From positions 930,001 through 994,000 of the forward strand of contig SMMW01000148.1 in NCBI GenBank assembly GCA_004794655.1: a stretch of DNA of 64,000 nt, in the 5' to 3' direction. A model generated the notes under the pieces. That model saw nothing but the letters and a program-made list of their open reading frames with translations, was not told the origin of the DNA and ran no database searches. This document shows, piece after piece, positions 34,856 through 64,000 of this stretch (position 1 is the stretch's first letter; each line of letters opens with the position of its first letter). The position numbers and the translations under genes are program-made. The DNA comes from Marisa cornuarietis (taxonomy: Eukaryota > Mollusca > Gastropoda > Architaenioglossa > Ampullariidae).

Positions 34856-37425
34856 TCATGCAGGATCAACTGGACCAAAGGAGCCACCTGTCTCCACGGG
34901 CACAGTAGAGGGAATCTCTACGGGCAAAAGAGGAGTGCCTGTGGTCTCTACCGGCAAAAGAGGGGCACCTGTGGTTTCTTCGGGCAAAAGAGGGATGCCT
35001 GTAGTCTCTACGGGCAAAAGAGGGGCACCTGTGGTTTCTACGGGCAAAAGAGGGGCGCCTGTGGTCTCCACGGGCAAAAGGGGAGCGCCTGTGGTCTCTA
35101 CTGGCAAAAGAGGGGCGCCTGTGGTCTCTACGGGCAAAAGAGGGGCACCTGTGGTCTCTACGGGCAAAAGAGGGGCGCCTGTAGTTGCTACGGGCAAAAA
35201 AGGGGCGCCTGTGGTCTCTACGGGCAAAAGAGGGGCGCCTGTAGTTGCTACGGGCAAAATAGGGGCGCCTGTGGTCTCTACGGGCAAAATAGGGGCGCCT
35301 GTGGTCTCTACGGGCAAAAGAGGGGCGCCTGTAGTTGCTACGGGCAAAATAGGGGCGCCTGTGGTCTCTACGGGCAAAATAGGGGCGGCTGTGGTCTCTA
35401 CGGGCACGTAGGGGGTGCGTGTGGTCGTCGACGCTTGCGTTGGTTTTGTGGTAGTAGTAGTTGCTGGAGCTGGAGTACGCAATTCTGCAAAGTTAAATAT
35501 TATGGACTTTAAAACTGAGACAAACGTGTCGTGTTTACTCAATATTATCTGTTTACTAATCATTAGTATAACTACTCAATCATTTGTGTGCTCAGTATTC
35601 CACTTGTTTAATCTTGATTTCACTTACTAAACAATTAATTTACCCTGTTCTAAATACTCACCGAAACCAAAAAAGCTGAGGCATCGGCGGCAGTTCTGGA
35701 GAGAGCGGATGAGATTGTTGTACTGTTCCCTGTAGAAGTTGTGGTAGTAGCTGTAGTAGTAGTACTCATTCCAGCTGGACGGCCATTGGCGCTTCACCTG
35801 CTCGCTCTCACGTTTTTTGTCGAAATCCCAGTCATTGCCTCGCGTCAATTGTGTGTAAAGATTTATGTAGTAGTTCTGTTTCGTAAACACACAAACTACT
35901 TTACATAGTAGTCCTATACTGTAAACACACAAATTTAACTCAATAGTATTTTCATCGAATTGGCAACGATTTCCCGACACTCGGGGCAACAAAAGTCAAG
36001 GAGCGGGTGTCCACATGCTTTTATGTTAGCTTTGGGGACATGAAGGAGCTTTCTGTGTGTAAAAAGGAAGTAGCAGGCGCGATAGTAAGAACTAAAGACA
36101 CTGACAGAAAACAATGCAGAACGAGTTTTGTTTTGTTGAAAATATAATATCATCAGCATACTTGCGAGAACTAAACAAGAAAAACAGCAAGATTTTTCGA
36201 AGATCGCTGCATAAAGGAGTTGTCTCCTTTGTTGATGTATACAGTCCCTGCTTACATGACGAAAATTGGAAGATGGGGAGTCATGGTAGCATGATGGTCA
36301 ACCTAACAGCAGGGAGGATTGTCAAGGTCTCATATTTTAAGACACAGGTATATCTCTCTGGATGTCATACCAGTTCTCGAGACTGGCCTCTAGAGTTTCC
36401 TCCAAGTACTATGGTTTCCTCCCCTTCATTTCCAGTTGCCAATTTCTCTCCACAGATAGCACGTGATGTCAGTGTCGGCAGATAACTGTCTTCAGCCCTC
36501 TCTCTAACAAAGTGTGGCATCAGTGACAGGAGATAACTGTCTGGCTCTCAAACAGAATGTGACTTCTCTAGGTGTAGCTCGGTAACCACGCTCGGGGGTG
36601 AGGACGATAACGGCATGACATCAATTATCACGGCATTAGAACGCATGCACCTGTCACGTGGGCAGCTAGAAGTCAAACATCGTCATCTCAGCGTATCCCG
36701 GCATCCACCGGAAGTAAAACAGGCAGATGCTTCGCCAGTCCTGCAGTTCGCACTAGCTAGAGTCTTACTGCAGCCACTCGTATTTACATACAGCCTAAGA
36801 TTTAATGATTTATGATTAAGTATATTCTAACCTATATAAATCTATACTCTCCTGTCATGGTAATATTTCTTTCTTTTTTAGTTTGGGAAATAAGTAAACA
36901 ATTTTTTTACAAAATAAAATTGCGATACTCACACAATAGTTCATGTCATAGACGTTTCGCAGGTATGAATTCACCTGGGAGAGCCGACTGACTTCCTGTT
37001 TTAGATAGTCGAGACTTGGCCGAGTGACGCGGGATCCAGCCTGGCCTTCAAACCAATAAATTTAAGAATAAAGTTTACCAGTAAAATATGTAACTTTTGA
37101 CTCTTAATACTGCTTTTACTAAAATTAATAAAGTGCTTTTTTCTTGTTTTGCATAAAGCTCAATGTGACTATATATCTATATTATGTCATTGCAGGATTA
37201 TTCCTAAAACAAAAAAAGACAAAATATTTAGAGGCGAATCCTGATTACAAACAGATTTCTATTACAACACTTTGCTTAGGTATCATTGCATTGACGAAGA
37301 AAAAAAAATTACCACTACACTTATGTACACTACACATAAACTGCATAAGAGAACTTACCTTGAGCCATGCCATCAAACAGACATGGAATGACTCCAACTA
37401 CAAACACAAAGACTGTCGTTCTCAT
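34856..37425 (-). CDS. Secreted mucin-tailed protein, gene A (four exons)
   Basis: Exons: 37425-37359, 37045-36933, 35875-35662, 35484-34856; phases 1-0-1; 340 residues. Donors are GTAAGT, GTGAGT and GTGAGT; acceptors are TTGAAG, GAAACAG and TTTGCAG. Exon 1 is a signal peptide (MRTTVFVFVVGVIPCLF). Exon 2 is helical ([20 protein letters not shown]) and ends in Cys. Exon 3 has a dibasic-rich stretch (DKKRESEQVKRQW), a Tyr cluster (EYYYYSYYHNFY) and NLIRSLQNCRRC. Exon 4 encodes about 17 copies of the 10-residue unit PVETTGAPLL, a likely O-glycosylated mucin domain, and ends GPVDPA without the Cys-basic-Cys tail of its paralogs. All four exons match genes B-D. No known family is recognised; it is secreted, function unknown. 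Confidence 0.82.
34890..35415 (-). repeat. 30-bp coding repeat of gene A
   Basis: About 17 copies of a 30-bp unit encode PVETTGAP(L/I)L. Recent copies differ by one or two bases (Val-Glu to Val-Ala, Leu to Ile). Confidence 0.93.
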
Positions 37426-37511
37426 TCTGATGCCTGCCAACTGCACATTCAGTCTGTGAGTTTACTGGATTTTTTTTCACCTGAGTGTTCAAGTGATCAT
37501 TCTCGGCTGAG

Positions 37512-37519
37512 TATTTATA
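37512..37519 (-). promoter_or_regulatory. TATA box of gene A
   Basis: TATAAATA on the minus strand lies 87 bp upstream of the ATG. The surrounding roughly 200 bp (GCGAGA.TTCATTAA.., GCTCACCGCAAGAGACAT) is conserved in genes B, C and D. Confidence 0.8.
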
Positions 37520-37944
37520 GTCTATGCGAGACTTCATTAAGAGTTATGATCCGCAAACAAGCGTGTGATCTCTGAGAAAAAACTGATTCAAAGCGAGATA
37601 ATGGTAGCGATGACCGTCAACCCTTTGTGGAGTTAATAACGCTCACCGCAAGAGACATTTTCTTTTTGTTTTTCGTGCCGAGTCACTGATACCTTCCTGT
37701 GGTGTTATTAGATTACAGACATAACAGTGGAATTTACTGTCGGTTTAGTCCCTATTTATATTATCTTCATATCTCTTCTTCTTGTCTTTCTACATTTTAT
37801 TGAGAATGAGGAAAATGTTTTTTGTCGTTAATGTATTTTATGCCACGTGTGTATTTGTATCAGCATGGAAAAATGTTCTACAAACTTTTATCGATAAACT
37901 TTCCCTTCCCTAAATAAAAGACAGTTATTTTAGAAAATAATTGT

Positions 37945-38790: not shown

Positions 38791-38792
38791 CA

Positions 38793-41700
38793 TTAACACG
38801 AAGAACCCCCTCTGCGACGTCTCATGCAGGGTTTAGGAGCGTTGATGGCGTCATTGCTTGGTTGTCCAGGTGGAATCTTAGTGGTTCTCGTTGTCCTAGG
38901 CGCTTGTGTATCTGGAAGTTGCGTGTTCGTAATTCTGCTCCCGGGTGCTTCTGTTGACGTAGAAGGCGAAATGGCGCGTGTGGTGTCTACGGGAGCCACG
39001 GATGCCACAGGGGCGCCTGTTGTCTCTTGGGGGGCTACGGGGGCGCCTGTGGTGTCTACAGGGGCCAAAGGGGCGACTGTTGTCCCTTCTGGGACCCCGG
39101 GGGCGCTTGTGGTCGGTACGGGGGCCGTAGGGGCCCCTGTTGTCCCTACGGGGGGGCCTGTGGTTTCTACGGGGGCCACGGGGGCGCTGGTGGTCTCTAC
39201 AGGGGCCACGGAGGCGCCTGTGGTCTCTACAGGAGCCACGGGGGCCACAGGGGCGCTTGTTGTCCCTTCTGGGAGAACGGGGGCGCTTGTGATCGGTACT
39301 GAGGTCATAGGGGCCCCTGTTGTCCCTTCGGGGGCTACGGGGGTGCCTGTGGTCTCTACGGGGGCCTCGGGAGCCACAGGAGCGCCTATTGTCCCTTCAG
39401 GGGCCACAGGGGCGCCTGTTGTCCCTTCGGGGGCCACAGGGGCGCCTGTGGTCTCTATGGGAGTGCCTGTAGTTTCTACAGGGGCCAAAGGGGCGACTGT
39501 TGTCCCTTCTGGGACCCCGGGGGCGCTTGTGGTCGGTACGGGGGCCGTAGGGGCCCCTGTTGTCCCTACGGGGGGGCCTGTGGTTTCTACGGGGGCCACG
39601 GGGGCGCTGGTGGTCTCTACAGGGGCCACGGAGGCGCCTGTGGTCTCTACAGGAGCCACGGGGGCCACAGGGGCGCTTGTTGTCCCTTCTGGGAGAACGG
39701 GGGCGCTTGTGATCGGTACTGAGGTCATAGGGGCCCCTGTTGTCCCTTCGGGGGCTACGGGGGTGCCTGTGGTCTCTACGGGGGCCTCGGGAGCCACAGG
39801 AGCGCCTATTGTCCCTTCAGGGGCCACAGGGGCGCCTGTTGTCCCTTCGGGGGCCACAGGGGCGCCTGTGGTCTCTATGGGAGTGCCTGTAGTTTCTACA
39901 GGGACCACGGGAGCGCCTGTAGTCTCTATGGGGGCCACGGGGGCGCTTGTTATCTGTACGGGGGCTACGGGGGCGCCTTCGGTCTCTAAGGGGGCCACGG
40001 GGGCGGCTGTGGTCTCTACAATTACAGGATTGGTGACGGGAGCCATAGATGTTGACTGAATACTGGTGGTGATCATCCTGGTTACACTGGTGATGGTTCT
40101 GGTGGGCGCTGGTGTACTTGGGCGAATAGTGGTGGTGGTGGTTGTCGTTGGCGCTGGCATACTTGAAATCTTTGTGATCTTGGTGGGTGTCGTGGGCAAT
40201 GGTGTACGTGGACGTGTAGTGGTGGTGATTGTCGTGGGCACTGGTGTAGAGGGACGCTTAATGATAGTGGTGGCTACCGTAGGTCTTGGTGTAGGTTGAC
40301 GTTTAGTGGTAATGGGGGTTGTCGTAGGCGCTGGTGTTCTTGGTTGCTGCGTGGTCGTGGTTCTGAGCGTAGGGGCTTGCATTGATTTTGTTGTCGTACG
40401 AATAGCAGGAGCGGGAGTACTCCATGCTGCAAATTTCAAAGTTCAGTATTAGAGATTTTTAAAATAAGACCAACCAGTCTTCTTTTCAATGTTTTTTTTT
40501 TCTTTTTACTAATGCATAGTTTAAACCACTCAGCCATCTCGGCAGCAACAACTAAAATCTCCAAAACGTTACAGACGTTAATCGACCTTGTTCTAAACGC
40601 TCTGCTCACCTAAAATATTTTGTGCTAAATAATCTACTCACTTATTATTCTTTTTGCTAAAAACTCACGTAAACCAAAGAAGTTGAGGAATCGGTGGCAG
40701 TTCTGGAGAGAACGCATGAGGTCGTTGTACTGTTGCATGTAGCGGTTGTAGTAGTAGTTGTAGTAGTAGTAATCATTCGAGTTGGACGACCATTGGCGCT
40801 TCCCCTGCTCGTTCTCGCGCTTTATCTCGAAATTCCATGCATTACCAAGACTCCATTGTTGGTAAAGGCTTATGTAGTACTCCTGTTATCCAAACACACA
40901 GACTTCATAATGTAGTAGTCTTTTTTTAATAAAACATACTACATTATGTAGCAGTCATGTTGCGTAAACACACACACACACACACATGTATACAGGAGTG
41001 AGGTGAGGTCAGTCAGCTGCTGATCCACACAGCCGTTACAGGTCAAGGCCAGGTCTCGTTTTCCTATCCACGTACCACGTGCTAGAGTTATTCTATACTA
41101 TAAGGTCAACAGCACTAAAAGGGTTATAACCATCTGGCTGCTATGAGCGCTTCATCCTTCTTGATGCCTTTAACACAGTGTGAGCTTTCTACATGTACAT
41201 CAGTTATCACACTGGCGATCGAGTAAGATAATGATGACTATGCCCTTGAAGGACCGCGGACGTGATGTCACGTGATGCGACAGCACAACGCCTACTCTTG
41301 TCACGTGAGCGACTAGGGAGCGCAACATTCTTGCGTCAGCGATTTCCGGCATCCTACCCATACATTTATTGTCCCAACAAAATTTTAAGTGAACTCAAAC
41401 GAGTATAATTTAAAGTCTGCTCTTATTTAAGTAAACTTGCCCAATATCGATATTTTTCATGTTTTTCAATTTGCAAAATACGTAAACAAATATGTCAATA
41501 TAAAAATCACTCACACATCTGTTCATGGTGTAGACATTTTGCAGGTAGGAATTCTCCTGGGACAGCCGATTGACTTCCTGTTTTAGGTAGTCGAGACTTG
41601 GCCGAGTTGTGCGGGATACAGCCTGACCTTCAAATCAATAAAAACGAGAAATAATTTTTTTTGGGGGAGGTCTTAGGTGAAGAAATTGTGTAACCCACGA

Positions 41701-44700
41701 TGTCACCCAAGAAAATGGTTGCTAAGGATAGTGCCGCTAAAAGGAAGAAGAATGCAATTTCCATAGAATCAAAGAAAGAGATCATAGGAAAACACGAGCG
41801 TGATCTACGTGTGGCTGAGCTCGCGAAGTTTTTCGGCCGTTCAGCATCAACAGTCTGCAGTATTCTGAAGGAGAAGGAAGAAATTTAGAAGCTTGATGTG
41901 GTCATAGGTGTAACCATGATTACCAAACAACGTCCAAAACTCCTGGAAGATGTTGAGAGGCTGTTGTTAGTGTAGGTCAACGAGAAGCAGTTAAAAGGCG
42001 CTTTCTTTTCCCCCCTGTTGGATCATCACCTTATCGTGGTCAGGGGGCTTGCGTGTCTCGATGACCCTATGAGCTATGCCGACAAGAGCATTAGCTCCTA
42101 GCAGGGTCACCCATGTCGGACAGGTCGAAGGGTAGAGACCAGACAAAGAGTGGTCCACTGTTCCCCCGGGTTACAGGGGGTTGGGCAATGGACTAACAAT
42201 TCATTCCTATACAAATAAATCCCTGTTATGGAAACAGAAACTAGAGACAATCTAACCAATGGTGGCAGTGGCAAGGCAAACCAGGTAACTGGACCTATGA
42301 CAGTTGGGGACCAAAGCCACAAGGATGTTCCCAATTTGACAGCCAATCTGCTTTCACCCCCCAAAAAACCTTTACTATTGGTTGCTGGAATGTAAGAACG
42401 TTAAACCAAACAGGAAAGTTTGCAATGCCCTCCAAGAAATGCATCTATACCGGCTTGATCTACTCGGAATTACGGAAGCAAGCTGGACAGGCAAAGGAAA
42501 GAGAACCCTTGCAAATGGTGACACTATATTGTGGTCTGGAAAAAACGACGACCAACACAAAGAAGGGGTTGCAATGATTATCCCAAAACAACATAAGAAA
42601 TCGCTGCTGGAATGGAAGCCAATCAGTGAACGCCAACTATACACCAGGCACAATTCTAGATTTAGCAAGCTCTCCATCCTGACCGGCTATGCACCTATAG
42701 AAGAGGCCGAGGAAGAGGACAAAGAAAGCTTTTATAACAGTTTATAGGCAGCAATAGAAAACATCCTTAACCATGATGTAATAATAGTACAGGGAGATTT
42801 TAATGCTAGAGTAGGCAGCAAGAACAAAGGAAGAGAAAGAACCATGGGAAAAAAGGTATAGGGGAGATGACAGACAACGGCAGCAGGTTGTGTGACTTTT
42901 GTGAACAAAATGACCTTGTAATAGGAGAAACACTTTTTCAGCATAAGAAGATACACAAGGTAACATGGAAATCACCTGATGGCAGGACAGAAAGCCAGAC
43001 TGACCACATTATCATCAATGGTAAATGGAGACACACGCTTCAAGATGTCAGAGTAAAAGGGGGGCAGACATAAGCAGTGATCATAACCTGCTCGTTGGCA
43101 AACTTACCCTAAAGCTTAGGAAAGCTAAGGCGGGAGAACAAAGACACCCACGCTTTGATAGAGAAAAGCTTAAAGACTCAGCAAACCAACGTCATGCCAT
43201 TAAAAAAAATTTAGCGCCCTAACAAATGACACCCAAATGACAATCACCAACTTTAACCATGCAATGAAAGAAGCGGCTAAAGAGAACATAGGCTACAGAA
43301 AAGCAGTAAATGAGAGCTGGATCTCCATGGAAACATGGAAATCAATTGAGCAGAGGAAAGAGATAAAACAGCAGTTGCTTAACGCAAAGTCTCCACGCTT
43401 AACAGAGAAGTTGAGAAAGGAACATTCACAGAAAGACAAGGAAGTAAAGAGATAAAAGAATGTTTGCAGAGAACCTGGCTCTAAGAGCAGAAGAAGCTGC
43501 AGAAAGACAAGACATGAATGTGGTTTATAAAATCACAAAAAGGCTCGCAGGAAACAGAAAGAGCAGTCAAGACATACCTTTAAAAACCCAAGATGGAAAC
43601 ATCATCACTGAAGAAAATAAGAAAGTAGAAAGATGGAATGAGCATTTCGAGCAAGTGCTCAATCGACCCAACCCCCCAGTACTAGCCAACATCCCAGAAA
43701 GTAAAGAAGACCTGGGCATAAATCTCGGCCCCATCACTATGGCCGAAGTAAAAGAAGCCATCCAACAACAACAAAAATGGCAAAGCCCCAGGACATTACG
43801 AGCTTTGCCCTGAAATGTTAAAGCTGGAAGTAGAAGAAATACCGAAGATGCTCTGCAAGATTTTCCACAAAATATGGGATACTGAACAAGCACCAGAAGA
43901 ATGGAAGAAAGGTATAATCTTCAAATTACCAAAGAAGGGTGACAGGGGACTGTAATAATTGGCGACGTATAATTCTGCTATCACAGACAAGTAAATTTTT
44001 CAGCCGTATCATTTTGAAAAGGCTCACAATTGTCCTGGATAACAGCATCAGGCAAGAACAAGCAGGCTTCAGAAAAGGAAAGTCATGCAGTGATCAAGTC
44101 TTCACCTTAAGGAAGATCATAGAACAAAACACATAATGGAACAGCACTCTTTACGCTGTGTTCATAGACTTTGAGAAAGCATTTGACAGCATACATCGTG
44201 AGTCATTATGGAAAATTAATCGCCATTATGGAATACCACAAAAAATAGTAAATGTAATGAAAGCGTTATACACAGAATTTCACTGTCAGGTGATTTGTAA
44301 TAACAGCGAACTAACAGATAACCTTAATATTACAACCGGAGCCAAACAATGATGCATTCTCTCGCCTTTCCTATTTATACTAGCCATGGACTGGCTTATG
44401 AAACAAACAACAAAAGACAAGAAAAGAGGAATCCGCTGGACACTTACATCAGTATTGGAAGACCTAGACTATGCTGATGACATTGTTATACTATCCAGCC
44501 AACACAAGGATCCCCAGGAAAAGATCAACGAGCTAACCACGACTGCATCAAAAATAGGACTAAATGTAAACATAGGAAAAACAAAAGAAATGAGACAGAA
44601 TGCCAAGTCAACAGAGCCCATCACAAATAACAACGAAGAAGTGGAAAAAATTCATGAATTTACATATCTTGGCAGCCTAGTAACAACAGATGGAGATACA

Positions 44701-46122
44701 GAAAAGGATGCTAAGAACAGACTTATCAAGGCAAACCAAACCTTTGCCATGCTTAAAGAAATTTGGAAGTCCAAAGTACTGAAGAGAAACACTAAATTAA
44801 GAATCTACAAAAGGTATGTTCTCCCAGTCTTACTCTATGGTAGTGAATGGTGGAAAATATCAACAAAATCCGGCAGAAAATAGAGACTTTCCACACCAAA
44901 TGTCTGAGGAAAATTTTCAGGATATTCTGGCCAACCATAATAACCAATAACGATCTCCTCACAAGAGCCAGCTGCACAAATATAACCACCATAATTAAAA
45001 AAAGAAGATGGAGATGGCTCGGACATGTGTGCAGAATGAAACCAGAGGCACCTCCCAAAATAGCCCTTCACTGGACAGCGGATGGCAAGAGGAAACGCGG
45101 CCGGCCAAAAGAAACGGCGACGGTCAGTAGAGAAAGAACTCAAAGACCAGAAACTAACCTGGAACGACATAACCAAACTTGCTACTGACAGACAAAAATG
45201 GAGGTCTCTAGTGCATGCCTTATGTACCACCTAGGTACGAAGAGGACTAAGTAAGTAAAAGTAAGTTCGTGTCTGAAGGTATCACGCGCGCAAAAGCAAA
45301 GGCGCTGGATGTAGACCTTGTCAGGAAGACACCAAGCACGTTGTCTGAAGATGAGAAGGCATTTAAAGCAAACCGGTAAGGGTTCGAAATTTTTAAAAAG
45401 AGAACTAGCATACAAAGTATAGTATGAGGGGAGGAGGCTACAGCTGCTGAAGAGATGTTTGTGCCCGAGTTCCAAGAAATCATCACTAGTGAGGGGACCT
45501 ACATCACGGCAAAGGAGAAATCTTTGCCTGGCCACAAGCTAATGAAGGACAAGCTCATCCTCTTGCTGTACGCCAATGCAAGTCAAGATTACAAAATCAA
45601 GCTGCTGTTTGTCTACCACTTAGAGAAACCACGAGTTTTCTTTGTAATTTTTTTTTAGGAAAATTACTTTAATTCTGCATAAAATAACATGTTAATTGAT
45701 TTTTATTGATACTTTTGGGGTGTGGAACGGATGAATTGGATTTTCACTATTTTAAATGGGTAAATTCGTTTCGAGACAGGAGTATTTCTTGATACGAGCT
45801 GCGTTATCGAACGAATTAAATTTGTAACCCGAGGCGTGACTATACTGATAATAAAAACTACATAGAATCGCATTTCTCACTCAGTAGAGAGCTCAATATG
45901 CCAGGTGAATGTTTATGATTACAAAAGAATTTTTATAATAAAACACTTACGTATGGAAATAATTTCCTCGGCGCCAAAGAAAGGTGTTGAGAAAATTATG
46001 TCGAAAAGGTGATGCGAAATTTAACCAACTGATGACCTGCACTAAGGGCACTTACCTTGAGCCATGTCTCCAAACAGACATGGACTGATTCCAGCTATGA
46101 ACAAAAACACTATCGGACTCAT
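38793..46122 (-). CDS. Secreted mucin-tailed protein, gene B (four exons, long intron 1)
   Basis: Exons: 46122-46056, 41627-41515, 40882-40669, 40426-38793 (TAA); phases 1-0-1; 675 residues. The signal exon begins [18 protein letters not shown]. Exon 2 reads [20 protein letters not shown] and ends in Cys. Exon 3 is as long as in gene A (71 full codons), with [18 protein letters not shown] and LMRSLQNC. Exon 4 begins with Thr/Pro/Arg repeats, then many units of the type [10 protein letters not shown], and ends with a Cys-Met-Arg4-Gly-Gly-Ser-Ser-Cys tail. A perfect 420-bp duplication lies inside exon 4. Intron 1 is 4.4 kb and is filled by a Tigger remnant with an RTE LINE inside it. It is a probable secreted, O-glycosylated protein; family not recognised. 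Confidence 0.83.
39061..39900 (-). repeat. Perfect 420-bp tandem duplication in exon 4 of gene B
   Basis: 39061-39480 and 39481-39900 appear identical base for base. The period is 140 codons and in frame, so it adds 140 residues to the mucin domain. Confidence 0.95.
41645..42005 (+). mobile_element. Tigger/pogo-like transposon, 5' part (DNA-binding domain)
   Basis: The frame from 41700 reads [20 protein letters not shown] then [20 protein letters not shown] and [18 protein letters not shown]. This is the CENP-B/Tigger N-terminal helix-turn-helix, broken by TAG at 41886-41888. The element is then interrupted by the RTE LINE at about 42006. It lies in intron 1 of gene B, opposite to that gene. 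Confidence 0.82.
42006..45245 (+). mobile_element. RTE-type LINE, near full length but inactivated
   Basis: It starts with a GGATCATCACCTTATCGTGG 5' region. Frames then give an endonuclease ([20 protein letters not shown] near 42.44 kb, [20 protein letters not shown] near 42.78 kb, [13 protein letters not shown] near 43.0 kb, SSDHNLLVG near 43.08 kb). Reverse-transcriptase blocks follow ([17 protein letters not shown] at 44.16 kb, [13 protein letters not shown] at 44.46 kb) and a C-terminal region with [12 protein letters not shown] at 45.01 kb. The 3' end is TAAGTAAGTAAAAGTAAG-like, typical of RTE. Stops and frameshifts occur throughout. It is inserted in the Tigger element in intron 1 of gene B. 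Confidence 0.9.
45246..45840 (+). mobile_element. Tigger/pogo-like transposon, 3' part
   Basis: The frame 45455-45658 reads [14 protein letters not shown] then [45 protein letters not shown]. This is the Tigger transposase DDE region with an internal deletion between the halves. It ends near 'aacccgaggcgtgactata', a Tigger-like terminal repeat. Confidence 0.82.
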
Positions 46123-50334: not shown

Positions 50335-52240
50335 TCATGGTGGGCATCCCCGTTTTTTCCCGCATCCTCCGGGAGGTGAGGTGGTTGTGGTTTCTACGGT
50401 GGGCAAAGGGGTGGTTGTGGTTTCTACGGGGACCGAGGTGACAGCAGTCGTGGTGGTTGTCGTGGGCGCTGATGTACTTGGATACTGCGTGGTCCTGGTT
50501 CTGTGGTGGTGTTCGTACTCTGATTCTGTGGTTGTAGTAGTCGCTGGAGCGGGAGTACTCCATGCTGCAAAGTAAAAGTTCAGTATAACAGATTTTCAAA
50601 ATAACACCAACCAGTCTTCAATGTTCTCTTCACTAAAGCATAGCTTATACCACTCAGCCATCTTGGCATCAAATAGAATAATCTCAAAAACGTAACAGAT
50701 ACTCTATGTGCTTAGTGGACCTTGTTCTAAACACTCTGCTCACCTAATCTGTTTTGTGCTAAATAATCTCTACATTTAATCTTTTGCTAAATACTCACGT
50801 AAACCAATGGACTCAATGCATCGGCGGCATTCCTGGAGAGAACTCACGAGGTTGTTGTACTCATTCTGGTGAGACGACTGTTTCCTCTTCGCCTGCTGAC
50901 TCTCGCGTTTTCCGTAGTAACCCCCTGCATGGCCTACAGGCCGATGTTGGCAAACACGTATGTAGTAGTCCTGTTACACAAACACCCAGACTTCATTATG
51001 TAGTAGTCCTGTTACACAAACACCCAGACTACGTTATGTAGTAGTCCTGTTACACAAACACCCAGACTACGTTATGAAGTAGTCCTGTTACACAAACACC
51101 CAGACTACGTTATGTAGTAGTCCTGTTACACAAACACACAGACTACGTTATGAAGTAGTCCTGTTACACAAACACCCAGACTACGTTATGTAGTAGTCCT
51201 GTTACACAAACACACAGACTACGTTATGTAGTAGTCCTGTTACACAAACACACACACTACGTTATGTAGTAGTCCTGTTACACAAACACCCAGACTACGT
51301 TATGTAGTAGTCCTGTTACACAAACACACAGACTACGTCATGTTGTAGTCCTGTTACACAAACACACAGACTACGTCATGTAGTAGTCCTGTTACACAAA
51401 CACACAGACTACGTTATGTAGTAGTCCTGTTACACAAACACACAGACTACGTTATGTAGTAGTCCTGTTACAGAAACACACAGACTACGTTATGTAGTAG
51501 TCCTGTTACACAAACACCCAGACTACGTTATGTAGTAGTCCTGTTACACAAACACACAGACTACGTTATGTAGTAGTCCTGTTACACAAACACACACACT
51601 ACGTTATGTAGTAGTCCTGTTACACAAACACCCAGACTACGTTATGTAGTAGTCCTGTTACACAAACACACAGACTACGTCATGTTGTAGTCCTGTTACA
51701 CAAACACACAGACTACGTTATGTAGTAGTCCTGTTACACAAACACACAGACTACGTTATGTAGTAGTCCTGTTACACAAACACACAGACTACGTTATGTA
51801 GTAGTCCTGTTACACAAACACACAGACTACGTTATGTAGTAGTCCTGTTACACAAACACACAGACTACGTTATGTAGTAGTCCTGTTACACAAACACACA
51901 GACTACGTTATGTAGTAGTCCTGTTACACAAACACACACACTACGTTATGTAGTAGTCCTGTTACACAAACACCCAGACTACGTTATGTAGTAGTCCTGT
52001 TACACAAACACACAGACTACGTCATGTTGTAGTCCTGTTACACAAACACACAGACTACGTTATGTAGTAGTCCTGTTACACAAACACACAGACTACGTTA
52101 TGTAGTAGTCCTGTTACACAAACACACAGACTACGTTATGTAGTAGTCCTGTTACACAAACACACAGACTACGTTATGTAGTAGTCCTGTTACACAAACA
52201 CACAGACTACGTTATGTAGTAGTCCTGTTACACAAACATA

Positions 52241-52295: not shown

Positions 52296-54125
52296 AGACA
52301 AGAGTGAAATGAAATCAGTCAGTTGGTGATGTCCTCACAACCGTTACAGGTCAAGGCCAGGTCTCGTTTTCCTATCTACGTACCACGTGTTAGCGTTATG
52401 CTGTGCTACGAGGCCAACAGCCCTTAAATCGTACAAAACCTCTCAAATCATGAAATTCAAATATGTACTTATGTTAAACATTCTTGCGTCATCGACTCCC
52501 GACATTTTTCGGAAGATAACGGGCTGATGGTCCCGCAGTTTGCACTAAGGTCGTCTACGTCTACTCGTACATGTCTTGTCCTAACAAAAATTTTAAGAAA
52601 CTTGTATAATTTAAAGTCTGTTCTATCTAATGTAAACTTCCCCAATATAGATATTCTTCATGTTTTTTTTCAATTTGCAGAAAAAGTGCAAACATTTATG
52701 TCAATATAAAAATCACTCACACAATTGTTCAAAGTGAAGATGGCTTGCAGGTAGGAATTCTGCTGGGAAAGCCGATGGCCTTCCTGTCTTAGGTAGTCGG
52801 GACTTGGCCGAGGGGTACGGGAACCTTGAAACCAACAAAACGAAGGATAAAGTTCATCCCGTTTTCTGCTTTCTCAAGATGATAACAGTAATCCACTAAA
52901 ATATGCAACTTAATGCTTTAGAAGTATGTAGCCTTATACGTTTCTCTCCAAGTAGTACTGTTGCTACTATTAGTAATAATAATAATAATAAATAATAATA
53001 ATAATAATAACTACAGTCAAACCTCGGTGTTTTCGTCGGTAATTTGTTCTAAGACCAGCGGCGACATCCCAAACGACGAAAAGTGAGGCAAATATTTCTA
53101 TATGAATGTAAATCCAATTGATTCGTTCTAAGCACTACAAAATACATACCACAAACATATTTTGTAGAGAATAAATGTAGTTTTTAATACTAAAAACAAT
53201 AAAAAAAACTAATCTAAAATGAACATAAAAGACTAATGTAAAGAGCTGCTGGCTGTGGAAACTTTCTTTCCTCCCATGATGGAGCTAAAAGGAAAGGGCT
53301 AACTAATTAGCAGGGAAAACACTTAACGGTGACGGTGAGACTTGACCACACGTGATTTTATCTAACTAGTGTTACGTTCACTTTGAAAGTGAAAAATGCA
53401 AAATAAACACATGACACCGAATACTGTGTTCGCAGTAACCACTTACCGTAGACTACGGACTATAAGCCGAGACTTTTGTCCCCAACTATAAACCCTGCGC
53501 CTCAAACAGCCACCGCCACTGCCACTTGTTAGCGGATTTTTCCGGATTTTTCAGATTCCGATTAATTTTTTGATGAGCTCCGTGTTTAACTGTTCACATT
53601 TTAAAATCAAAGTCGCATACAAATGAAGCATTAACACTCGCAATCAACAAAAACAGCACAAAAACACTGAAAAGCAATGGAATTGTGTGGCTAACAAGCG
53701 GGTGGATGCTCACAAGAGAAACAACACCACACTGAGCAGCAGAACGCGTGGGTCGCCCTTTGTTTTCTCACAATTAGCAGCGAGGTCACGTGGGCACGCT
53801 GACGAAATCCGAGGCAAATTTTATGCGGGGGGGGGGGGAATCGACAAAAACCGAACCGACGATAACCATAGGCAACGAAACCCACTCAGTAGACAGCTGA
53901 ATGTGCCAGATGAATAAGATTACAAAAACGAATTTCTGTAATAAAACAATTTTTTATGGAAATAATTTTGTTGGCGCCAAAGAAAGATGTTGAGAAAATT
54001 ACGTCGAAAATGTGAAACGAAAATGAGGCAACTGCTGACCTGCACTAAGGGCACTTACCTTGAGCCATGTCTCCAAACAGACATGGACTGATTCCAGCTA
54101 TGAACAAAAACACTATCGGACTCAT
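50335..54125 (-). CDS. Secreted mucin-tailed protein, gene C (four exons, short form)
   Basis: Exons: 54125-54059, 52824-52721, 50970-50799, 50564-50335 (TGA); phases 1-0-1; 190 residues. Exon 1 encodes the same signal peptide as gene B. Exon 2 (RPSPDYLRQEGHRLSQQNSY ..NNC) lacks two codons after the junction. Exon 3 begins DYYIRVCQHR, carries GKRESQQAKRKQ, and has lost the Tyr cluster; it ends SLQECRRCIESIGL. Exon 4 is short: Thr-rich (TTTTT, SAPTTTTT, VETTTTP twice) and ending GGCGKKRGCPP. The exon-4 frame was chosen by the phase-1 junction; another open frame over the same DNA starts MKICYTELLL and is rejected. Intron 2 contains the 39-bp satellite with repeated acceptors. It is secreted; no known family. 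Confidence 0.82.
50971..52240 (-). repeat. 39-bp satellite carrying the exon-3 splice acceptor of gene C
   Basis: About 32 tandem copies of a 39-bp unit. On the minus strand each copy reads TTTGTGTAACAG followed by GACTACTACATA, i.e. the 3' splice site and first four codons of exon 3, then ACG and an in-frame TAG. The array lies immediately upstream of the true exon 3 (starting 50970). Gene D has only one extra unit at the same place. Confidence 0.95.
52246..52293. repeat. (CT)n(CA)n microsatellite
   Basis: A short CT run followed by a long CA run borders the satellite. The counterpart in the other arm is the GT run at 58043-58092. Confidence 0.96.
52972..53012. repeat. (TAA)n microsatellite in intron 1 of gene C
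   Basis: AATAAT repeats correspond to the (ATT)n run at 57306-57351 in gene D. Confidence 0.92.
53014..53935. mobile_element. Tigger-like non-autonomous element(s) in intron 1 of gene C
   Basis: The left end is CAGTCAAACCTCGGTGTTTT and the interior contains 'cgtagactacggactataagcc' and a G10 run. There is no intact transposase. The CAGTCAAACCTCGG start resembles Tigger/mariner-type termini. The same insertion is in gene D, so it predates the inverted duplication. Confidence 0.55.
54059..54125 (-). CDS. Signal-peptide exon 1 of gene C
   Basis: 67 bp, from ATG at 54125 to the CAAG|GTAAGTGCC donor. It is identical to exon 1 of gene D and to the exon-1 protein of gene B; part of the gene C model. 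Confidence 0.8.

Positions 54126-55590: not shown

Positions 55591-55594
<4 letters not shown>

Positions 55595-55685
<91 letters not shown>
55595..55685. repeat. (GT)~45 microsatellite
   Basis: Uninterrupted GT run of about 90 bp near the inner end of the right arm. It faces a shorter CA run at 54707-54733. Confidence 0.97.
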
Positions 55686-55686
<1 letters not shown>

Positions 55687-56161
55687 AAGCACGGTCCTGT
55701 GTATATATGCGAGTGTGCGTTTGTGTGTATATGTATTCACGCGTGTATGTGTGCGCACGTATGAATGTAAATTTTCATACTTGAGTTACTATGAGAAGTA
55801 AACATCATAAGTAATATGTAAAAACAATTTCAAAGACCGAAACAAACGTTGCATAATAAATTGAAACGGCCTGTATTCAATATATATATATATATATTGA
55901 ATATAGATAGAAAGACAAGAAGACAGATGAAAATATTTCACCTGCAGATTAAAATCAATGTGAGACTGTAATCTTTTAAAATCGCACGAATATTACAGAA
56001 AGTTTCACATAAAAAAACACAAAATGGTGCCTCTTGCAGCGAGCATAATTAAGCCCACAGGGCGATGGTGGCTGGGGTTCCCATTATCTACTTATGAATC
56101 TGTTTTATTTTGTTTAAGACTAATTTGTCGATCGTGCTGTTTAATGAAATCTCGCACAGGC

Positions 56162-56169
56162 TATAAATA
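56162..56169 (+). promoter_or_regulatory. TATA box of gene D
   Basis: TATAAATA lies 83 bp before the ATG. The block from about 56035 to the ATG is the inverted copy of the gene C promoter. Confidence 0.82.
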
Positions 56170-56251
56170 CTTTCTACTGGAATGAATCGCTCGAGCACTC
56201 ATCTGAAGAAACGGTGAAGTCACAGACTGTCTTCAGTTTGTAAGCATCACA

Positions 56252-57305
56252 ATGAGTCCGATAGTGTTTTTGTTCATAGCTGGAATCAGTCCATGTCTGT
56301 TTGGAGACATGGCTCAAGGTAAGTGCCCTTAGTGCAGGTCAGCAGTTGCCTCATTTTCGTTTCACATTTTCGACGTAATTTTCTCAACATCTTTCTTTGG
56401 CGCCAACAAAATTATTTCCATAAAAAATTGTTTTATTACAGAAATTCGTTTTTGTAATATTATTCATTTGGCACATTCAGCTGTCTACTGGGTGGGTTTC
56501 GTTGCCTATGGTTATCGTCGGTTTCGGTTTTCGTTGATTCCCCCCCCCCCCGCGTAAAATTTGCCTCGGATTTCGTCAGCGTGCCCACGTGACCTCGCTG
56601 CTAATTGTGAGAAAACAAAGGGCGACCCACGCGTTCTGCTGCTCAGTGTGGTGTTGTTTCTCTTGTGAGCATCCACCCGCATGTTAGCCACACAATTCCA
56701 TTGCTTTTCAGTGTTTTTGTGCTGTTTTTGTTGATTGCGAGTGTTAATGCTTCATTTGTATGCGACTTTGATTTAAAAAACGGAACAGTTAAACACGGAG
56801 CTCATCAAAACATTAATCGGAATCTGAAAAATCCGCTAACAAGTGGCAGTGGCGGTGGCTGTTTGAGGCGCAGGGTTTATAGTTGGGGACAAAAGTCTCG
56901 GCTTATAGTCCGCAGTCTACGGTAAGTGGTTACTGCGAACACAGTATTCGGTGTCATGTGTTTATTTTGCATTTTTCACTTTCAAAGTGAACGTAACACT
57001 AGTTAGATAAAATCACATGTGGTCAAATCTCACCGTCACTGTTAAGTGTTTTCCCTGCTAATTAGTTAGCCCTTTCCTTTTAGCTCCATCATGGGAGGAA
57101 AGAAAGTTTCCAGAGCCAGCAGCACTTTCATTTTAGATTAATTTTTTTATTGTTTTTAGTATTAAACACTTCATCTTTTCTAGTGCTTAGAAGTGATCAA
57201 CTGGATTTACATTCATATAGAAATATTTGCCTGATTTTTCGTTGGTCTCGGATGTCGCCGCTGGTCTTAGAACGAATTACCTACGAAAACCGAGGTTTTA
57301 CTGTA

Positions 57306-57352
<47 letters not shown>

Positions 57353-58040
57353 CACCATCACTAATAGTAGCAACAGTACTACTTGGAGAGAAACGTATAA
57401 GGCTACATACTTCTAAAGCATTAAGTTGCATATTTAAGTGGATTACTGTTATCATCTTGAGAAAGCAGAAAACGGGATGAACTTTATCCTTCGTTTTGTT
57501 GGTTTCAAGGTTCCCGTACCCCTCGGCCAAGTCCCGACTACCTAAGACAGGAAGGCCATCGGCTTTCCCAGCAGAATTCCTACCTGCAAGCCATCTTCAC
57601 TTTGAACAATTGTGTGAGTGATTTTTATATTGACATAAATGTTTGCACTTTTTCTGCAAATTGAAAAAAAACAATTGAAGAATATCTATATTGGGGAAGT
57701 TTACATTAGATAGAACAGACTTTAAATTATACAAGTTTCTTAAAATTGTTGTTAGGACAAAACATGAACGAGTAGACATAGAAGACCCTAGTGCAAACTG
57801 CGGGACCATCAGCCCGTTCTCTTCCGAAAAATGTCAGGAGTCGATGACGCAAGAATGTTTAACATAAGTACATATTTGAATTTCATCATTTGACAGGTTT
57901 CGTACGATTTAAGGGCTGTTGGCCTCGTCGCACAGCATAACGCTAACACGTGGTACGTAGATAGGAAAACGAGACCTGGCCTTGACCTGTAACGGTTGTG
58001 AAGACATCAGCAGCTGACTGATTTCATTTCACTCTTGTCT

Positions 58041-58097
<57 letters not shown>

Positions 58098-58803
58098 AGA
58101 GAGAGAGTGTGTGTGTGTTTGTGTAACAGGACTACTACATAACGTAGTCTGTGTGTTTGTGTAACAGGACTACTACATACGTGTTTGCCAACATCGGCCT
58201 GTAGGCCATGCAGGGGGTTACTACGGAAAACGCGTGAGTCAGCAGGCGGAGAGGAAACAGTCGTCTCACCAGAATAAGTACAACAACCTCGTGAGTTCTC
58301 TCCAGGAATGCCGCCGATGCATTGAGTCCATTGGTTTACGTGAGTATTTAGCAAAAGATTAAATGTAGAGATTATTTAGCACAAAATAGATTAGGTGAGC
58401 AGAGTGTTTAGAACAAGGTCCACTAAGCACATAGAGTATCTGTTACGTTTTTGAGATTATTCTATTTGATGCCAAGATGGCTGAGTGGTATAAGCTATGC
58501 TTTAGTGAAGAGAACATTGAAGACTGGCTGGTGTTATTTTGAAAATCTGTTATACTGAACTTTTACTTTGCAGCATGGAGTACTCCCGCTCCAGCGACTA
58601 CTACAACCACACAATCAGAGTACGAACACCAGCACAGAACCAGGACCACGCAGTATCCAAGTACACCAGCGCCCACGACAACCACCACGACTGCTGTCAC
58701 CTCGGTCCCCGTAGAAACCACAACCACCCCTTTGCCCACCGTAGAAACCACAACCACCTCCCCTCCCGGAGGATGCGGGAAAAAACGGGGATGCCCACCA
58801 TGA
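56252..58803 (+). CDS. Secreted mucin-tailed protein, gene D (four exons, inverted copy of gene C)
   Basis: Exons: 56252-56318, 57510-57613, 58168-58339, 58574-58803 (TGA); phases 1-0-1; 190 residues. Donors are GTAAGT, GTGAGT, GTGAGT; acceptors are TTTCAAG, GTAACAG and TTTGCAG. Architecture is as in gene C: signal peptide, helical DYLRQEGHRLSQQNSY exon ending in Cys, basic Cys-containing exon 3, Thr-rich exon 4 ending GGCGKKRGCPP. Exons 1 and 2 are identical to gene C. Exon 3 differs by three replacements (Glu to Val, Lys to Glu, Glu to Lys) and exon 4 by three (Glu to Gln, His to Gln, Ser to Pro) plus one silent change. The Glu-to-Val change creates GTGAGT at 58234-58239, a possible internal donor. 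It is transcribed opposite to its relatives. Confidence 0.83.
56470..57304. mobile_element. Tigger-like non-autonomous element(s) in intron 1 of gene D
   Basis: Inverted counterpart of 53014-53935, ending AAAACCGAGGTTTTACTGTA before an (ATT)n run. The frame 56665-56925 lies inside it and is not a gene. Confidence 0.55.
57306..57351. repeat. (ATT)n microsatellite
   Basis: About 15 ATT units in intron 1 of gene D. Confidence 0.95.
58043..58127. repeat. (GT)n(GA)n(GT)n microsatellite
   Basis: A GT run of about 50 bp, then GAGAGAGA, then GT again, in intron 2 of gene D directly before the single 39-bp unit. Confidence 0.95.
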
Positions 58804-59457
58804 AGACAAACCCGTTACCTAACCACAAATGTCGTACCAAAGCCGATCTATGCACTTATTACAAACGGAGGATTATGAATACAAACTGCACTGTATTGAC
58901 AAACACTGGGAAACAATGTCAAGCAATTCTGACACGTGGTCAGCCTTAAAGTAATCTTGGTAGTGGCGCATGTGTAAAGCAGGCTATGATACATACGTGC
59001 ACACACATCGCCTAATGACATTATTTTGAGGATAGAAGTAGGTTCACTAGGAGCATGTTGTCCAACATTTCTCACTTTGTTTCAATTCGTCTTTCTAGCG
59101 TTGACCTGAGGTGGAAATGATGACACCAAGGATAATAATAACTTTAATAATAATAATAATAAGTTAGATGAGAAATCACGGAAACAAGAGAGGACCTACA
59201 TGTTCAGGGTTATGACCTGCACGACCTGTTTATTTCTTGGAACGAAGTATTTCTCTTGTCTGTCACTGAGGTAAAGAAACAATACAACTGTACCTTTATA
59301 AAATTTAAAACATCATGGGTGCTCAACACAGATCTGAACTTTTCAAACTGATGTGGATTATTGTCACTCTTTTAAATGAGTTTCAGTTTACTATTCTATC
59401 CATTGCTTGTTTCCTGATATATATACCTATGTTAACCTGATGCTGTTATGAGGACAT

Positions 59458-59463
59458 AATAAA
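59458..59463 (+). terminator. AATAAA of gene D
   Basis: CATAATAAAAAATG lies 655 bp after the stop and matches the signal in the 3' flanks of B, C and E. Confidence 0.6.
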
Positions 59464-59635
59464 AAATGCAGTTTCTTTGGGTTGTTTGCAGCTTACTTTG
59501 TGAGTATTCAGATTTGTATTAGAAATAAATATCATAGTAATACGAAATACAGCATAATTAACTTCTTTTCTAATACACAACTATACACGTAAGTAGCACG
59601 TATAATACCTTAAATGGTTTTTGGATAATACTTTA

Positions 59636-59637
<2 letters not shown>

Positions 59638-59669
<32 letters not shown>

Positions 59670-59760: not shown

Positions 59761-59763
<3 letters not shown>

Positions 59764-59815: not shown

Positions 59816-59816
59816 C

Positions 59817-59887
<71 letters not shown>
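59816..59887. repeat. (GAT)24 trinucleotide repeat
   Basis: Uninterrupted GAT run. The equivalent in the left arm (49196-49215) has only about five units, so this copy expanded after the duplication. Confidence 0.96.
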
Positions 59888-61379: not shown

Positions 61380-62130
61380 ATTGTAGCAGATTTAAAGATT
61401 ATCGACACCACATTTCTAAAGCTCTGTAAGTGCATCCCTAAGCGAGGGATGTGACAGGAGTCACTGTTCGTGTTGCTGTCCGCTTGTGGCCATTGAAGTG
61501 GCGCAAACTCGTCTTGCAGGGAAGGCCCGTTATCTTTGTTTTCATCCTCGTCGTTTGGTTTTTTGGTCGTCGTCGTCCTTCTCCTCCTCATCATCATCTG
61601 TTTAATTCGAAAATGAAGGTGTTAACTGTTGGTCGGACGTTTTTGGTATAAAAAAAATCTAGTTCACGGTTCGTAGATAAACCTTGTAACATCCCCCGTA
61701 CAGTGTAGGAATCCGTGTGTTTATGTATTTGTGTGTGTGTGTGTGTGTGTGCGCGCGCGCGCGCAGACACGCGCGTGGGTATATATGTGAGTGTGCGTTT
61801 ATATATGTATTCTTGCGTGTATGTGAGCGCCCGCATGAATGCGTGGGTGCGTGTTTCTGTGTGCGTGTGTGTGTGTGTTTCTGTGTGTGTGTGTGCGTGT
61901 CATGTAGAAAGTATTATCCCAATCATTTAGAGTGTGTGCGTGTGTTTATCATTTATCATTTAATTTAAGGTATGTGTGCGTGCTGCTTACGTGTACAGCA
62001 GTGTATTAGAATAATAGTGAATTATGCTGTATATTGTATTACTCGGGAATATATTTGTAATACAAAATTTATTGCGTAATAACTGCAAACAACCCGAAGA
62101 AACCGCACTCTTTTATTATGTTATCAGTGT
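61380..62130 (-). other. 3' flank of gene E, distal part
   Basis: Matches the downstream blocks of genes B and C ('gttgctgtccgcttgtggcc', a GT-rich stretch at 61731-61765, and the AATAAA block). The stretch 61690-61730 also matches the inner ends of the inverted arms. Confidence 0.75.
62112..62117 (-). terminator. AATAAA of gene E, displaced
   Basis: A minus-strand AATAAA at the equivalent position to genes B-D, but about 930 bp of foreign sequence separates it from the rest of the 3' UTR. Confidence 0.5.
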
Positions 62131-63068
62131 CACGGTCACGCCCCCGGTGTCACCGGATGCACAAACGCAGCCACTCACTCAGCCGCCACGCTCACACAGT
62201 CACTCACTCGGCCAGGGGTGGAACAGGACGTGCCTATCGAACCATAGATGAGCGCAGACCAAAACAAAGTCGGTAACGGTACAAACAACAGTATTATACA
62301 CAGTGAAAGAAAGGTATTATACACAGTGAAAGAAAAAAAACGAATAAAAAGGAACAAATAAAACTATATAAAATCCTGTGCGTGCGGGCGCACACACGCC
62401 CAAAAATAAAATGAAACCTGCCTCGAGCAAGGGGAGGGACACCCACACAAAAAGGGGGGAGAGAGAACACAAAACCACTAAAAGGGGGGGGGGGTGGAGC
62501 AGGGGACACAACACTCGCACACACTGTGGCGTAGCAGTGGGGGAGCAAACTGTCCGTGGAGTGTATGGGGCGCCAAGAGGGGAATTTTCTCAAATTTGCT
62601 ATTTCTAGCTATACATTGCAATGTATAATTATAGAATGCAATGTATAACTATACATTGCATTTTATACTTATAGATTGCATTTTATATTTATACAATTCA
62701 TTCTATACTTATAGATTGCATTCTATAGCTATACATTGTAATGTATAATTATACATTGCAATGTATAGCTAGAGAGAGAAAACTCGGTAAAAACCGAAGT
62801 GTTTCATTTATATTATACTCAGAAGTTGCTATCCAATTCATTTTAGATATACCTTTCAATTCTTTAGCTATAGAATGCATTCTAGCTATACATTTTAAAT
62901 CTATATTTATAGATTGCATTCTATAACTTTTGACTTGAAATGTATACGGAACGAGGCTGGCTCATTTGCATATGGGAAAAGAAGGTCAAAGACCAACCAA
63001 TCGCAGAGTTTGAGAAGGAAACAAGAGAACTGAAGAAATAATCGCAGACACGCAACAATCACAAAGGC
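62131..63068. mobile_element. ~930-bp insertion in the 3' UTR of gene E
   Basis: In genes B-D the AATAAA block runs straight into 'catgttaacat'. Here the two are separated by unrelated sequence with G-rich runs (62454-62494) and an AT-rich palindromic array. No transposase is seen. The nature of the insertion is unknown. Confidence 0.55.
62605..62935. repeat. AT-rich palindromic array
   Basis: Many copies of TATACATTGCAATGTATA-like sequences occur. The perfect 18-bp palindrome is at 62610-62627 and 62750-62767, with imperfect versions throughout (tatagaatgcattctata types). Confidence 0.88.
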
Positions 63069-63840
63069 TTTATGTTAACATAGATTTATTTATCAGGAAA
63101 CAAGCAGTGGACAGTAAAGCAGAATGAAACTCCCTAAAATAATTTAAAACAGTGACAATAATACAATTGTCAGTTTGAAACGTTTGGATCTGTGTTAAGT
63201 AACCAGGAGAATTTAAATCTAAAAAAACGTTGAGGCGTATGTTTCTTTACCTCATGGACAGAGCAGAGAAATAAACAGGTCGTGCATGTCATGACACTGA
63301 ACATGTAAAGTCCTCTCTTGTTTCTGTAATATTACCTCCAAATTATTGGCATTCTCACTGTCATCATCTCCACTTTAGGTCAACGCTAAAAAGACGAGTT
63401 GAGACAAAGTGTGCAATGTTGGACAACATGTTTCAATGGAATCTAGTTTTCCACCATAATAATGTCAACGTATATTTTAAGAAATGTCATCTCTCTGATT
63501 ATTAGTGACAAAAATAGAATTTCTATATCATTAATTTATAAGTAGGTGTGAGTTGTGTTCATAGACCTCAAATTAGGCGATGTGAGTGACGTATGTATTA
63601 TATCCTGCTTTACACGTGCGCCACTAACAAGATTAAGGCTGACCACGTGTCAGAATTGCTTGACATTGTTTCCCAGTGTTTCTTAATACAGCGCAGTTTG
63701 TATTCATAAACATCCGTTTCTGATAAATGCATAGCTCGGCTTCGGTACTACATTTGTGGTTAGGTAACATTTTTGGCTTCATAGCTAATATATCCCTCTT
63801 TTCGTGCACGTTACAGGAGGTGGGATGGGCTCTGTGTTAT
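63069..63840 (-). other. 3' UTR of gene E, proximal part
   Basis: Matches 49690-50334 downstream of gene C and 38330-38790 downstream of gene B ('gaattgcttgacattgtttccc', 'gctcggcttcggtac'). Confidence 0.75.
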
Positions 63841-64000
63841 CTACAGAGCCACTGTGCAGTCAGAACTCTCACTGCCTCTTTTCCTGCACGTTACAGGAGG
63901 TGGGATGGGCTCTGTGTTATCTACAGGGGCCACTGTGCAGTCAGAACTCTCACTGCCTCTTTTCCTGCACGTTACAGGAGGTGGGATGGGCTCTGTGTTA
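63841..64000 (-). CDS. Secreted mucin-tailed protein, gene E, last-exon fragment
   Basis: The minus strand is open from the right edge to TAG at 63843-63841. It contains two copies of an 81-bp unit (27 residues) with NTEPIPPPVTCRKRGSESSD followed by Cys. The Pro-rich stretch plus Cys-basic-Cys motif matches the tail of genes B-D, here repeated. The 3' flank is the shared paralog block, which fixes its identity. A one-base deletion in the last linker (CTACAGAGCC on plus, against CTACAGGGGCC) makes the stop; without it the frame would run through a third, partial unit to about 63788. The other exons lie outside the window. Confidence 0.65.
   Translation of the reverse strand, partial: NTEPIPPPVTCRKRGSESSDCTVAPVDNTEPIPPPVTCRKRGSESSDCTVAL

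What the first reader, a model, noticed from the sequence alone, without database searches (positions are those of the whole stretch)
34856..64000. Cluster of five secreted, mucin-tailed paralogs with no recognised family
Genes A-D share a four-exon design with intron phases 1-0-1: signal peptide, short helical exon ending in Cys, Tyr/basic exon with a LxxSLQ(N/E)C motif, and a Thr/Pro repeat exon of very different length (209, 544, 76 and 76 codons in A, B, C and D). Gene E is cut by the window edge. Promoter, splice sites and AATAAA are conserved, as expected for live genes. I recognise no described family.
Basis: partly seen in the sequence, partly recalled or inferred. Interest (0 to 1): 0.88.

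Follow-up and report, generated by a model that had tools for sequence, protein, structure and literature searches.

The report
Apple-snail clustered mucin-like secreted proteins
A snail genome carries five neighbouring related genes, with one uncharacterised relative found in an apple snail, that are predicted to encode secreted mucin-like proteins and would likely help to build mucus, glue or egg jelly; the family looks new, its general kind does not.

Summary
Four complete four-exon genes (A, B, C on minus, D on plus) lie at 34856-58803, with GT-AG junctions and phases 1-0-1 throughout. Gene E, cut by the window, is complete in the next 4.5 kb of the contig: 389 codons, same architecture. 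No further copy was found in the 333 kb of contig examined. In three searches of 5.8 billion proteins the only relative was C0Q70_21392, an uncharacterised Pomacea canaliculata protein. Assembly size suggests Marisa cornuarietis. Pfam and PDB gave no family above cut-off. The proteins have a predicted signal peptide (exon 1), a likely helical head with shared cysteines (exons 2-3) and a Thr/Pro-rich tail; four of five tails carry a Cys-basic-Cys loop, seven tandem copies in E. Exon 1 is identical in B-E (0 of 67 bases), while exon 3 differs more than intron 3 in B-C and C-E; dN/dS is about 1, so conversion of the flanks explains this as well as selection. The best analogue is the Drosophila salivary glue (Sgs) genes, by analogy, not homology. 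Expression and O-glycosylation are untested; gene C may splice poorly.

The parts
37359..37425 (-). gene A exon 1, predicted signal peptide
36933..37045 (-). gene A exon 2, ends in Cys60
35662..35875 (-). gene A exon 3, Tyr/basic exon with Cys122 and Cys125
34856..35484 (-). gene A exon 4, Thr/Pro repeat tail, no C-terminal Cys loop
46056..46122 (-). gene B exon 1, predicted signal peptide
41515..41627 (-). gene B exon 2
40669..40882 (-). gene B exon 3
38793..40426 (-). gene B exon 4, 544-codon tail ending in one Cys-basic-Cys loop
54059..54125 (-). gene C exon 1, predicted signal peptide
52721..52824 (-). gene C exon 2
50799..50970 (-). gene C exon 3, lacks the 14-residue Tyr stretch
50335..50564 (-). 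gene C exon 4, 76-codon tail with one Cys loop
50959..52238 (-). 38-bp minisatellite in intron 2 of gene C, its unit holding a copy of the exon-3 acceptor; 34 acceptors, 1 gives the frame
56252..56318 (+). gene D exon 1, predicted signal peptide
57510..57613 (+). gene D exon 2
58168..58339 (+). gene D exon 3
58574..58803 (+). gene D exon 4, 76-codon tail with one Cys loop
49464..54762 (.). left arm of the inverted duplication holding gene C (mate 55632-59666; 94.9% and 92.5% in two blocks, the minisatellite between them)
55632..59666 (.). right arm of the inverted duplication holding gene D
63841..64000 (-). gene E, 3' end of exon 4 (rest at window coordinates 64001-68542, in L003): Cys-loop repeat tail

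Best explanation
Genes A-E are paralogs of a family that my searches found only here and in the apple snail Pomacea, predicted to encode secreted proteins with a likely helical, probably disulfide-held head and a Thr/Pro-rich, probably O-glycosylated tail, which would act as structural parts of a mucus, glue or egg jelly. Shown: the gene structures, the paralogy, the shared cysteines, the tail repeats of very different length and the Cys-basic-Cys loops (0 in A, 1 each in B, C and D, 7 in E, 2 in the Pomacea protein). Inferred: exon 1 is cleaved off as signal peptide; head helices pack together and are tied by Cys60-Cys122 and Cys67-Cys125 (B lacks both of the latter); odd cysteines (three in A's mature head) and the loops link molecules to one another; the tail holds water and its length sets viscosity or reach; the basic loops bind acidic glycans. 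Repeat copy-number change, duplication, inversion and likely exchange between copies vary the set within the cluster.
For: Gene models and conserved regulatory sequence. Tail composition 44-58% Pro+Thr+Ser. Cysteine pattern across A-E and P0001. Two AlphaFold models of the Pomacea relative give helices near 34-54, 56/60-72 and 95-128, with ten-residue blocks there at pLDDT 64-87, and a low-confidence tail. C/D inverted duplication. Exon 1 identical in B-E against 12-17% difference of aligned introns in B-C, B-E and C-E. A similar set of traits in Drosophila glue genes: signal peptide with phase-1 intron, Pro/Thr/Ser repeats of varying number, cysteines suggested to cross-link, clustered duplications, inversions and gene conversions (passages of PMC6352337 and PMC10835880).
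Against: No transcript, protein or tissue data. The leucine-heptad reading of exon 2 is not significant (5 of 5 proteins with shuffle p 0.05 to 0.18), and C and D carry Pro and Gly in it. Models are low in overall confidence (mean pLDDT 58 and 54) and match no solved fold clearly. Tails of A, B and E are only 24-29% Thr+Ser. A has no Cys loop, so the loop is not shared by the whole family. dN/dS of about 1 leaves weak constraint possible. The use as mucus, glue or jelly is an analogy.
Confidence: 0.5

Rival explanations
1. The proteins are defence or reproductive effectors: the head binds microbes, parasites or a mating partner's molecules, and the mucin tail only displays it.
For: Exon 1 is fixed while exon 3 differs more than introns in B-C and C-E, a pattern recalled from toxin, immune and reproductive families. 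The basic Cys loops resemble small antimicrobial loops (recalled, untested). MUC7 is a precedent of a secreted mucin with an anti-fungal domain (abstract of PMC4997351).
Against: Nonsynonymous excess in exon 3 was significant in 0 of 6 pairs. Synonymous sites in exon 3 are also raised (dS 0.24-0.30 among B, C, E), which points to exchange between copies outside exon 3. No Pfam family above cut-off supports a binding or killing role.
Confidence: 0.25
2. Organic matrix protein of the egg covering or shell, with the Tyr-rich exon 3 used for oxidative cross-linking.
For: Tyr is 11% of the heads of A and B. Albumen and capsule glands of Pomacea are enriched for mucin-type O-glycan synthesis and tyrosine metabolism pathways (passage of PMC13394694).
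Against: C and D lack the Tyr-rich stretch. The passages of that paper that I saw name no such protein, and nothing I have links these genes to a gland.
Confidence: 0.15
3. Partly decayed or unexpressed copies: A, B and E may work, but C and D are recent by-products of an inverted duplication.
For: C and D differ at 7 of 573 coding bases, 6 of the 7 nonsynonymous. In C, 33 of 34 tandem acceptors lead to early stops. C and D lack 14 residues of exon 3 and have Pro and Gly in exon 2.
Against: C and D keep six mature cysteines, full reading frames, promoter and 3' block. D has only two acceptor copies before exon 3.
Confidence: 0.1

Closest known systems
C0Q70_21392 (P0001), hypothetical protein of Pomacea canaliculata
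   Same: 61% identity to B and 49% to A over the head; same signal region, head cysteines, Thr-rich tail and two CRKRG...C loops
   Different: No function assigned; its exon structure was not examined; one annotated protein found there against five genes here
Drosophila salivary glue genes Sgs1/3/7/8 and Eig71Ee
   Same: Clustered secreted paralogs, phase-1 intron at the signal peptide, Pro/Thr/Ser repeats of variable number, cysteines, local duplication, inversion and conversion (passages of PMC6352337 and PMC10835880)
   Different: Two coding exons in Sgs1/3/7/8 against four here; intron inside the signal peptide there, at its predicted end here; no Sgs protein was listed by the protein searches; a helical Tyr-rich head and a Cys-basic-Cys loop are not described in the passages seen
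MUC7 (small salivary mucin of mammals)
   Same: Secreted protein with a copy-number-variable Pro/Thr/Ser repeat region inside one exon (abstract and start of text of PMC4997351)
   Different: Not listed by the protein searches and not compared directly; different exon design (recalled)
Gel-forming mucins (MUC2/MUC5 type)
   Same: Thr/Pro-rich, probably glycosylated stretch and possible disulfide linking
   Different: No VWD, C8, TIL or cystine-knot domain by Pfam in the proteins scanned; far smaller (sizes of MUC2/MUC5 recalled)

Membership tests
Gel-forming mucin | VWD/C8/TIL domains and C-terminal cystine knot (definition recalled) | tested here: not met
   Pfam scans of the heads of A and B and the full C and of the tails of A and B, the full E and P0001: no such domain; D, a near copy of C, was not scanned
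Mucin-like secreted protein | Pro/Thr/Ser-rich repeat region | tested here: met
   44-58% Pro+Thr+Ser in six of six tails (A-D and P0001, E)
Mucin-like secreted protein | Dense O-glycosylation | not testable with these tools
   needs purified protein
Mucin-like secreted protein | Signal peptide | tested here: inconclusive
   Read by eye: hydrophobic core, likely cut after A-Q-G at the exon 1/2 border; no predictor run
[quoted passage not shown]
   Phase 1 is met; the intron falls at the end of the signal peptide as judged by eye, not inside it
Drosophila Sgs glue family | Sequence homology to Sgs ends | tested here: inconclusive
   Three protein searches listed no insect protein, but they need shared 5-residue words; Sgs itself was not compared
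Drosophila Sgs glue family | Expression in a glue-secreting gland | not testable with these tools
   no transcript data held
Apple-snail family typified by C0Q70_21392 | Aligned head with Cys60, Cys122 and the RPSxDYL...QxxSYL and YNxxxxxLxxxC motifs | tested here: met
   E = 3e-28 for A alone; 3e-75 for the profile of A-D and P0001, which is not independent as it holds P0001; E aligned

The most novel reading that the evidence does not exclude
An undescribed, apple-snail-restricted family of secreted modular polymers that diversifies like a toxin family: the signal exon is held identical across four copies, the folded head exon changes faster than the introns beside it, the tail length ranges sevenfold, and a disulfide-closed basic loop is multiplied from none to seven copies, so that one small cluster produces a graded set of cross-linking mucins.
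Probability: 0.3. Interest if true: 0.65.

Novelty: new variant of a known kind. Interest (0 to 1): 0.45.

Why it matters
Apple snails lay eggs under water (Marisa) or in air (Pomacea diffusa, Pila; passages of PMC13336756), and mucus and egg coverings matter to them, yet the one database relative of these proteins is named only 'hypothetical'. If they are the gel or glue of such a secretion, the cluster shows how a new mucin-like family arises and diversifies in one lineage, next to cases such as the fly glue genes. It also allows a test of whether signal-exon conservation with head-exon change comes from selection or from conversion.

Tried and rejected

A leucine-zipper reading of exon 2 was tested by shuffling and dropped as a claim: p 0.05-0.18 in 5 of 5 proteins. 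Exon 3's helix gave p 0.013 in P0001 but 0.10-0.35 in A-D, and was not used either.

Positive selection on exon 3: exon 3 differs more than introns at p < 0.05 in 4 of 6 pairs of A, B, C, E (D left out as a near copy of C; A-C rests on 55 intron columns), but not in A-B or A-E, and BLAST-aligned introns are biased to the similar parts. With full-length intron 3 as control, 2 of 3 pairs hold (B-C p 0.003, C-E p 0.003, B-E p 0.095). Nonsynonymous excess was not significant in any pair. I therefore state divergence, not selection.

A link between the family and the secreted-looking ORF at 22765-23682 was tested against E's head only and not found.

Paper searches for the relative's locus tag (0 papers), for Pomacea mucin in the albumen gland, Marisa mucus and egg mass, Pomacea mucus proteomes and taxonomically restricted mucin-like secreted proteins in apple snails listed no paper that I could tie to the family; a search for minisatellite acceptor arrays listed none that I used. 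Only open-licence PMC papers are held. I saw passages of six papers (PMC13394694, PMC13336756, PMC7566022, PMC5839033, PMC6352337, PMC10835880) and the abstract and start of the text of a seventh (PMC4997351).

A whole-genome count of the family failed: the protein search of the window's own genome did not complete.
Full report
WHAT IS THERE. I rebuilt the genes from the sequence. A (340 aa), B (675 aa) and C (190 aa) lie on the minus strand, D (190 aa) on the plus strand. Each has exon 1 of 67 bases, exon 2 of 104-113, exon 3 of 172-214 and exon 4 of 230-1634 bases; 12 of 12 introns are GT-AG with phases 1-0-1. Gene E was completed from the neighbouring contig sequence: exons at window coordinates 68476-68542, 67998-68110, 64856-65069 and 63841-64616 on the minus strand, 389 aa. 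No further member was found in contig C51 from 720001 to its end at 1052983: the tblastn hits outside 34000-70000 were at E 0.049 or weaker, and of 80 hits inside that stretch 2, at E 3.4 and 8.8, lay off the known exons. The rest of the genome was not searched for the family; one 37-base exon-3 pattern was found twice in the whole genome, in C and D.

WHICH ORGANISM. The window is G000:C51:930001-994000 of an assembly of 534,278,870 bases in 572 contigs. A table in PMC7566022 gives Marisa cornuarietis as 535,287,142 bases in 659 scaffolds (passage). With a Pomacea canaliculata protein as the only relative this points to Marisa, by inference.

RELATIVES. Search of A, of a profile of A-D and P0001 and of B in 5.77 billion proteins returned one protein, C0Q70_21392 of P. 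canaliculata, 231 aa, named 'hypothetical protein'; B's search returned none, and its length window excluded that protein. Pfam and PDB sequences gave nothing above cut-off. Absence from these collections does not prove restriction to apple snails: fast evolution and missing annotation could hide relatives.

DOMAIN PLAN. Exon 1 encodes a predicted signal peptide with a likely cut at its border with exon 2 (by eye). The head (exons 2-3) has Cys60 and Cys122 in all five genes and in P0001; Cys67 and Cys125 are both present in C, D, E and P0001, both absent in B, and A keeps only Cys125 (alignment numbering of B). Loss of both in B suggests a Cys67-Cys125 bridge. AlphaFold models of P0001, alone and with eight single-exon rows of A-D (ends of some rows misplaced by the aligner), agree on helices near 34-54, 56/60-72 and 95-128 and a low-confidence tail; mean pLDDT is 58 and 54, so only the helical nature is taken from them. 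Tails are 44-58% Pro+Thr+Ser. B, C, D and E end in, or repeat, a loop of two cysteines around a basic stretch, P0001 has two, A none. In E the 27-residue unit with CRKRGSESS(E/D)C occurs seven times.

EVOLUTION. C and D are an inverted duplication of 94.9% and 92.5% identity in two blocks, with 7 differences in 573 coding bases. Exon 1 has 0 of 67 differences in B-C, B-E and C-E, where aligned introns differ by 12-17%; D's exon 1 is identical too, and A differs from B, C and E at 13 of 67. The stretch from near the TATA box to the end of exon 1 differs at 2, 7 and 5 of 155 bases in these pairs. Exon 3 differs at 28%, 20% and 24% in B-C, B-E and C-E against 16%, 15% and 13% in the full intron 3 (p 0.003, 0.095, 0.003). 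dN/dS in exon 3 is 0.96-1.30 for these pairs and 0.66, 1.03 and 0.83 for A-B, A-C and A-E; no exon-3 test is significant in either direction. Because dS in exon 3 is also above intron divergence, the simplest account is that old paralogs had their 5' ends and introns levelled by gene conversion while exon 3 was left alone; selection on exon 3 is possible but not shown.

A SPLICING ODDITY. Intron 2 of C ends in a 38-bp minisatellite, whose unit is the exon-3 acceptor plus the first exon bases. Of 34 acceptors, 32 would give a stop after 5 codons, 1 after 24, and only the last gives the frame. D has two copies, and A, B and E show one or two decayed ones, by eye. How C is spliced, if it is, is open.

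HOW IT MIGHT WORK. Secretion, head folding, cross-linking by odd cysteines and loops, and a hydrated glycosylated tail would give a gel or glue component, with tail length and loop number varied by repeat slippage and by exchange between copies. The fly salivary glue genes show a similar set of traits and are described as making a bioadhesive (passages of PMC6352337 and PMC10835880). This is analogy: the phase-1 intron sits inside the signal peptide there and at its predicted end here, and no sequence relation was found. I put 0.5 on a structural role in mucus, glue or egg jelly, 0.25 on defence or reproduction, 0.15 on egg covering or shell matrix, and 0.1 on C and D being by-products.

NOVELTY. 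My paper searches reached no description of the family; I saw passages of six papers and the abstract and start of a seventh. Lineage-restricted, repeat-tailed secreted proteins are a known kind, so I rate it as a new variant of a known kind with interest 0.45.

Noticed in passing
window 1-13878 (starts at window coordinate -6188, L009): Plus-strand open frame of 6,688 codons, 52% Pro+Thr+Ser, with 10 Cys and several tandem repeats: a giant mucin-like coding stretch ending 21 kb from gene A. No Pfam match in its first 1000 window codons.
   Followed up: partly
window 22765-23682, minus strand: Open frame that contains a signal-like start (MMAVTRVTLTLALLLVQFVTGG), basic KKR and RRKR sites, a CC pair and a leucine-rich Cys-ending stretch: looks like an exon of another secreted precursor; no Pfam match and no similarity to the head of gene E.
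   Followed up: partly
window 42340-45230, plus strand: Broken LINE-type element (span judged by eye); reverse transcriptase match at 44353-44880, none at 42340-42744. It lies in intron 1 of gene B, which is 4,428 bases long.
   Followed up: partly
window 24623-27422, minus strand: Another broken non-LTR element: reverse transcriptase match at 25485-25904 and an endonuclease match just below its cut-off at 26580-27422; none at 24623-25381.
   Followed up: no
window 19615-21540: 36-bp minisatellite of 54 copies.
   Followed up: no
3' flanks of genes A-E: A conserved block around an AATAAA (form in C: GACATAATAAAAAAGTGCAGTTTCTTTGGGTTGTTTG) lies about 500-670 bases after the stop in A-D and at +1723 in E.
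   Followed up: partly
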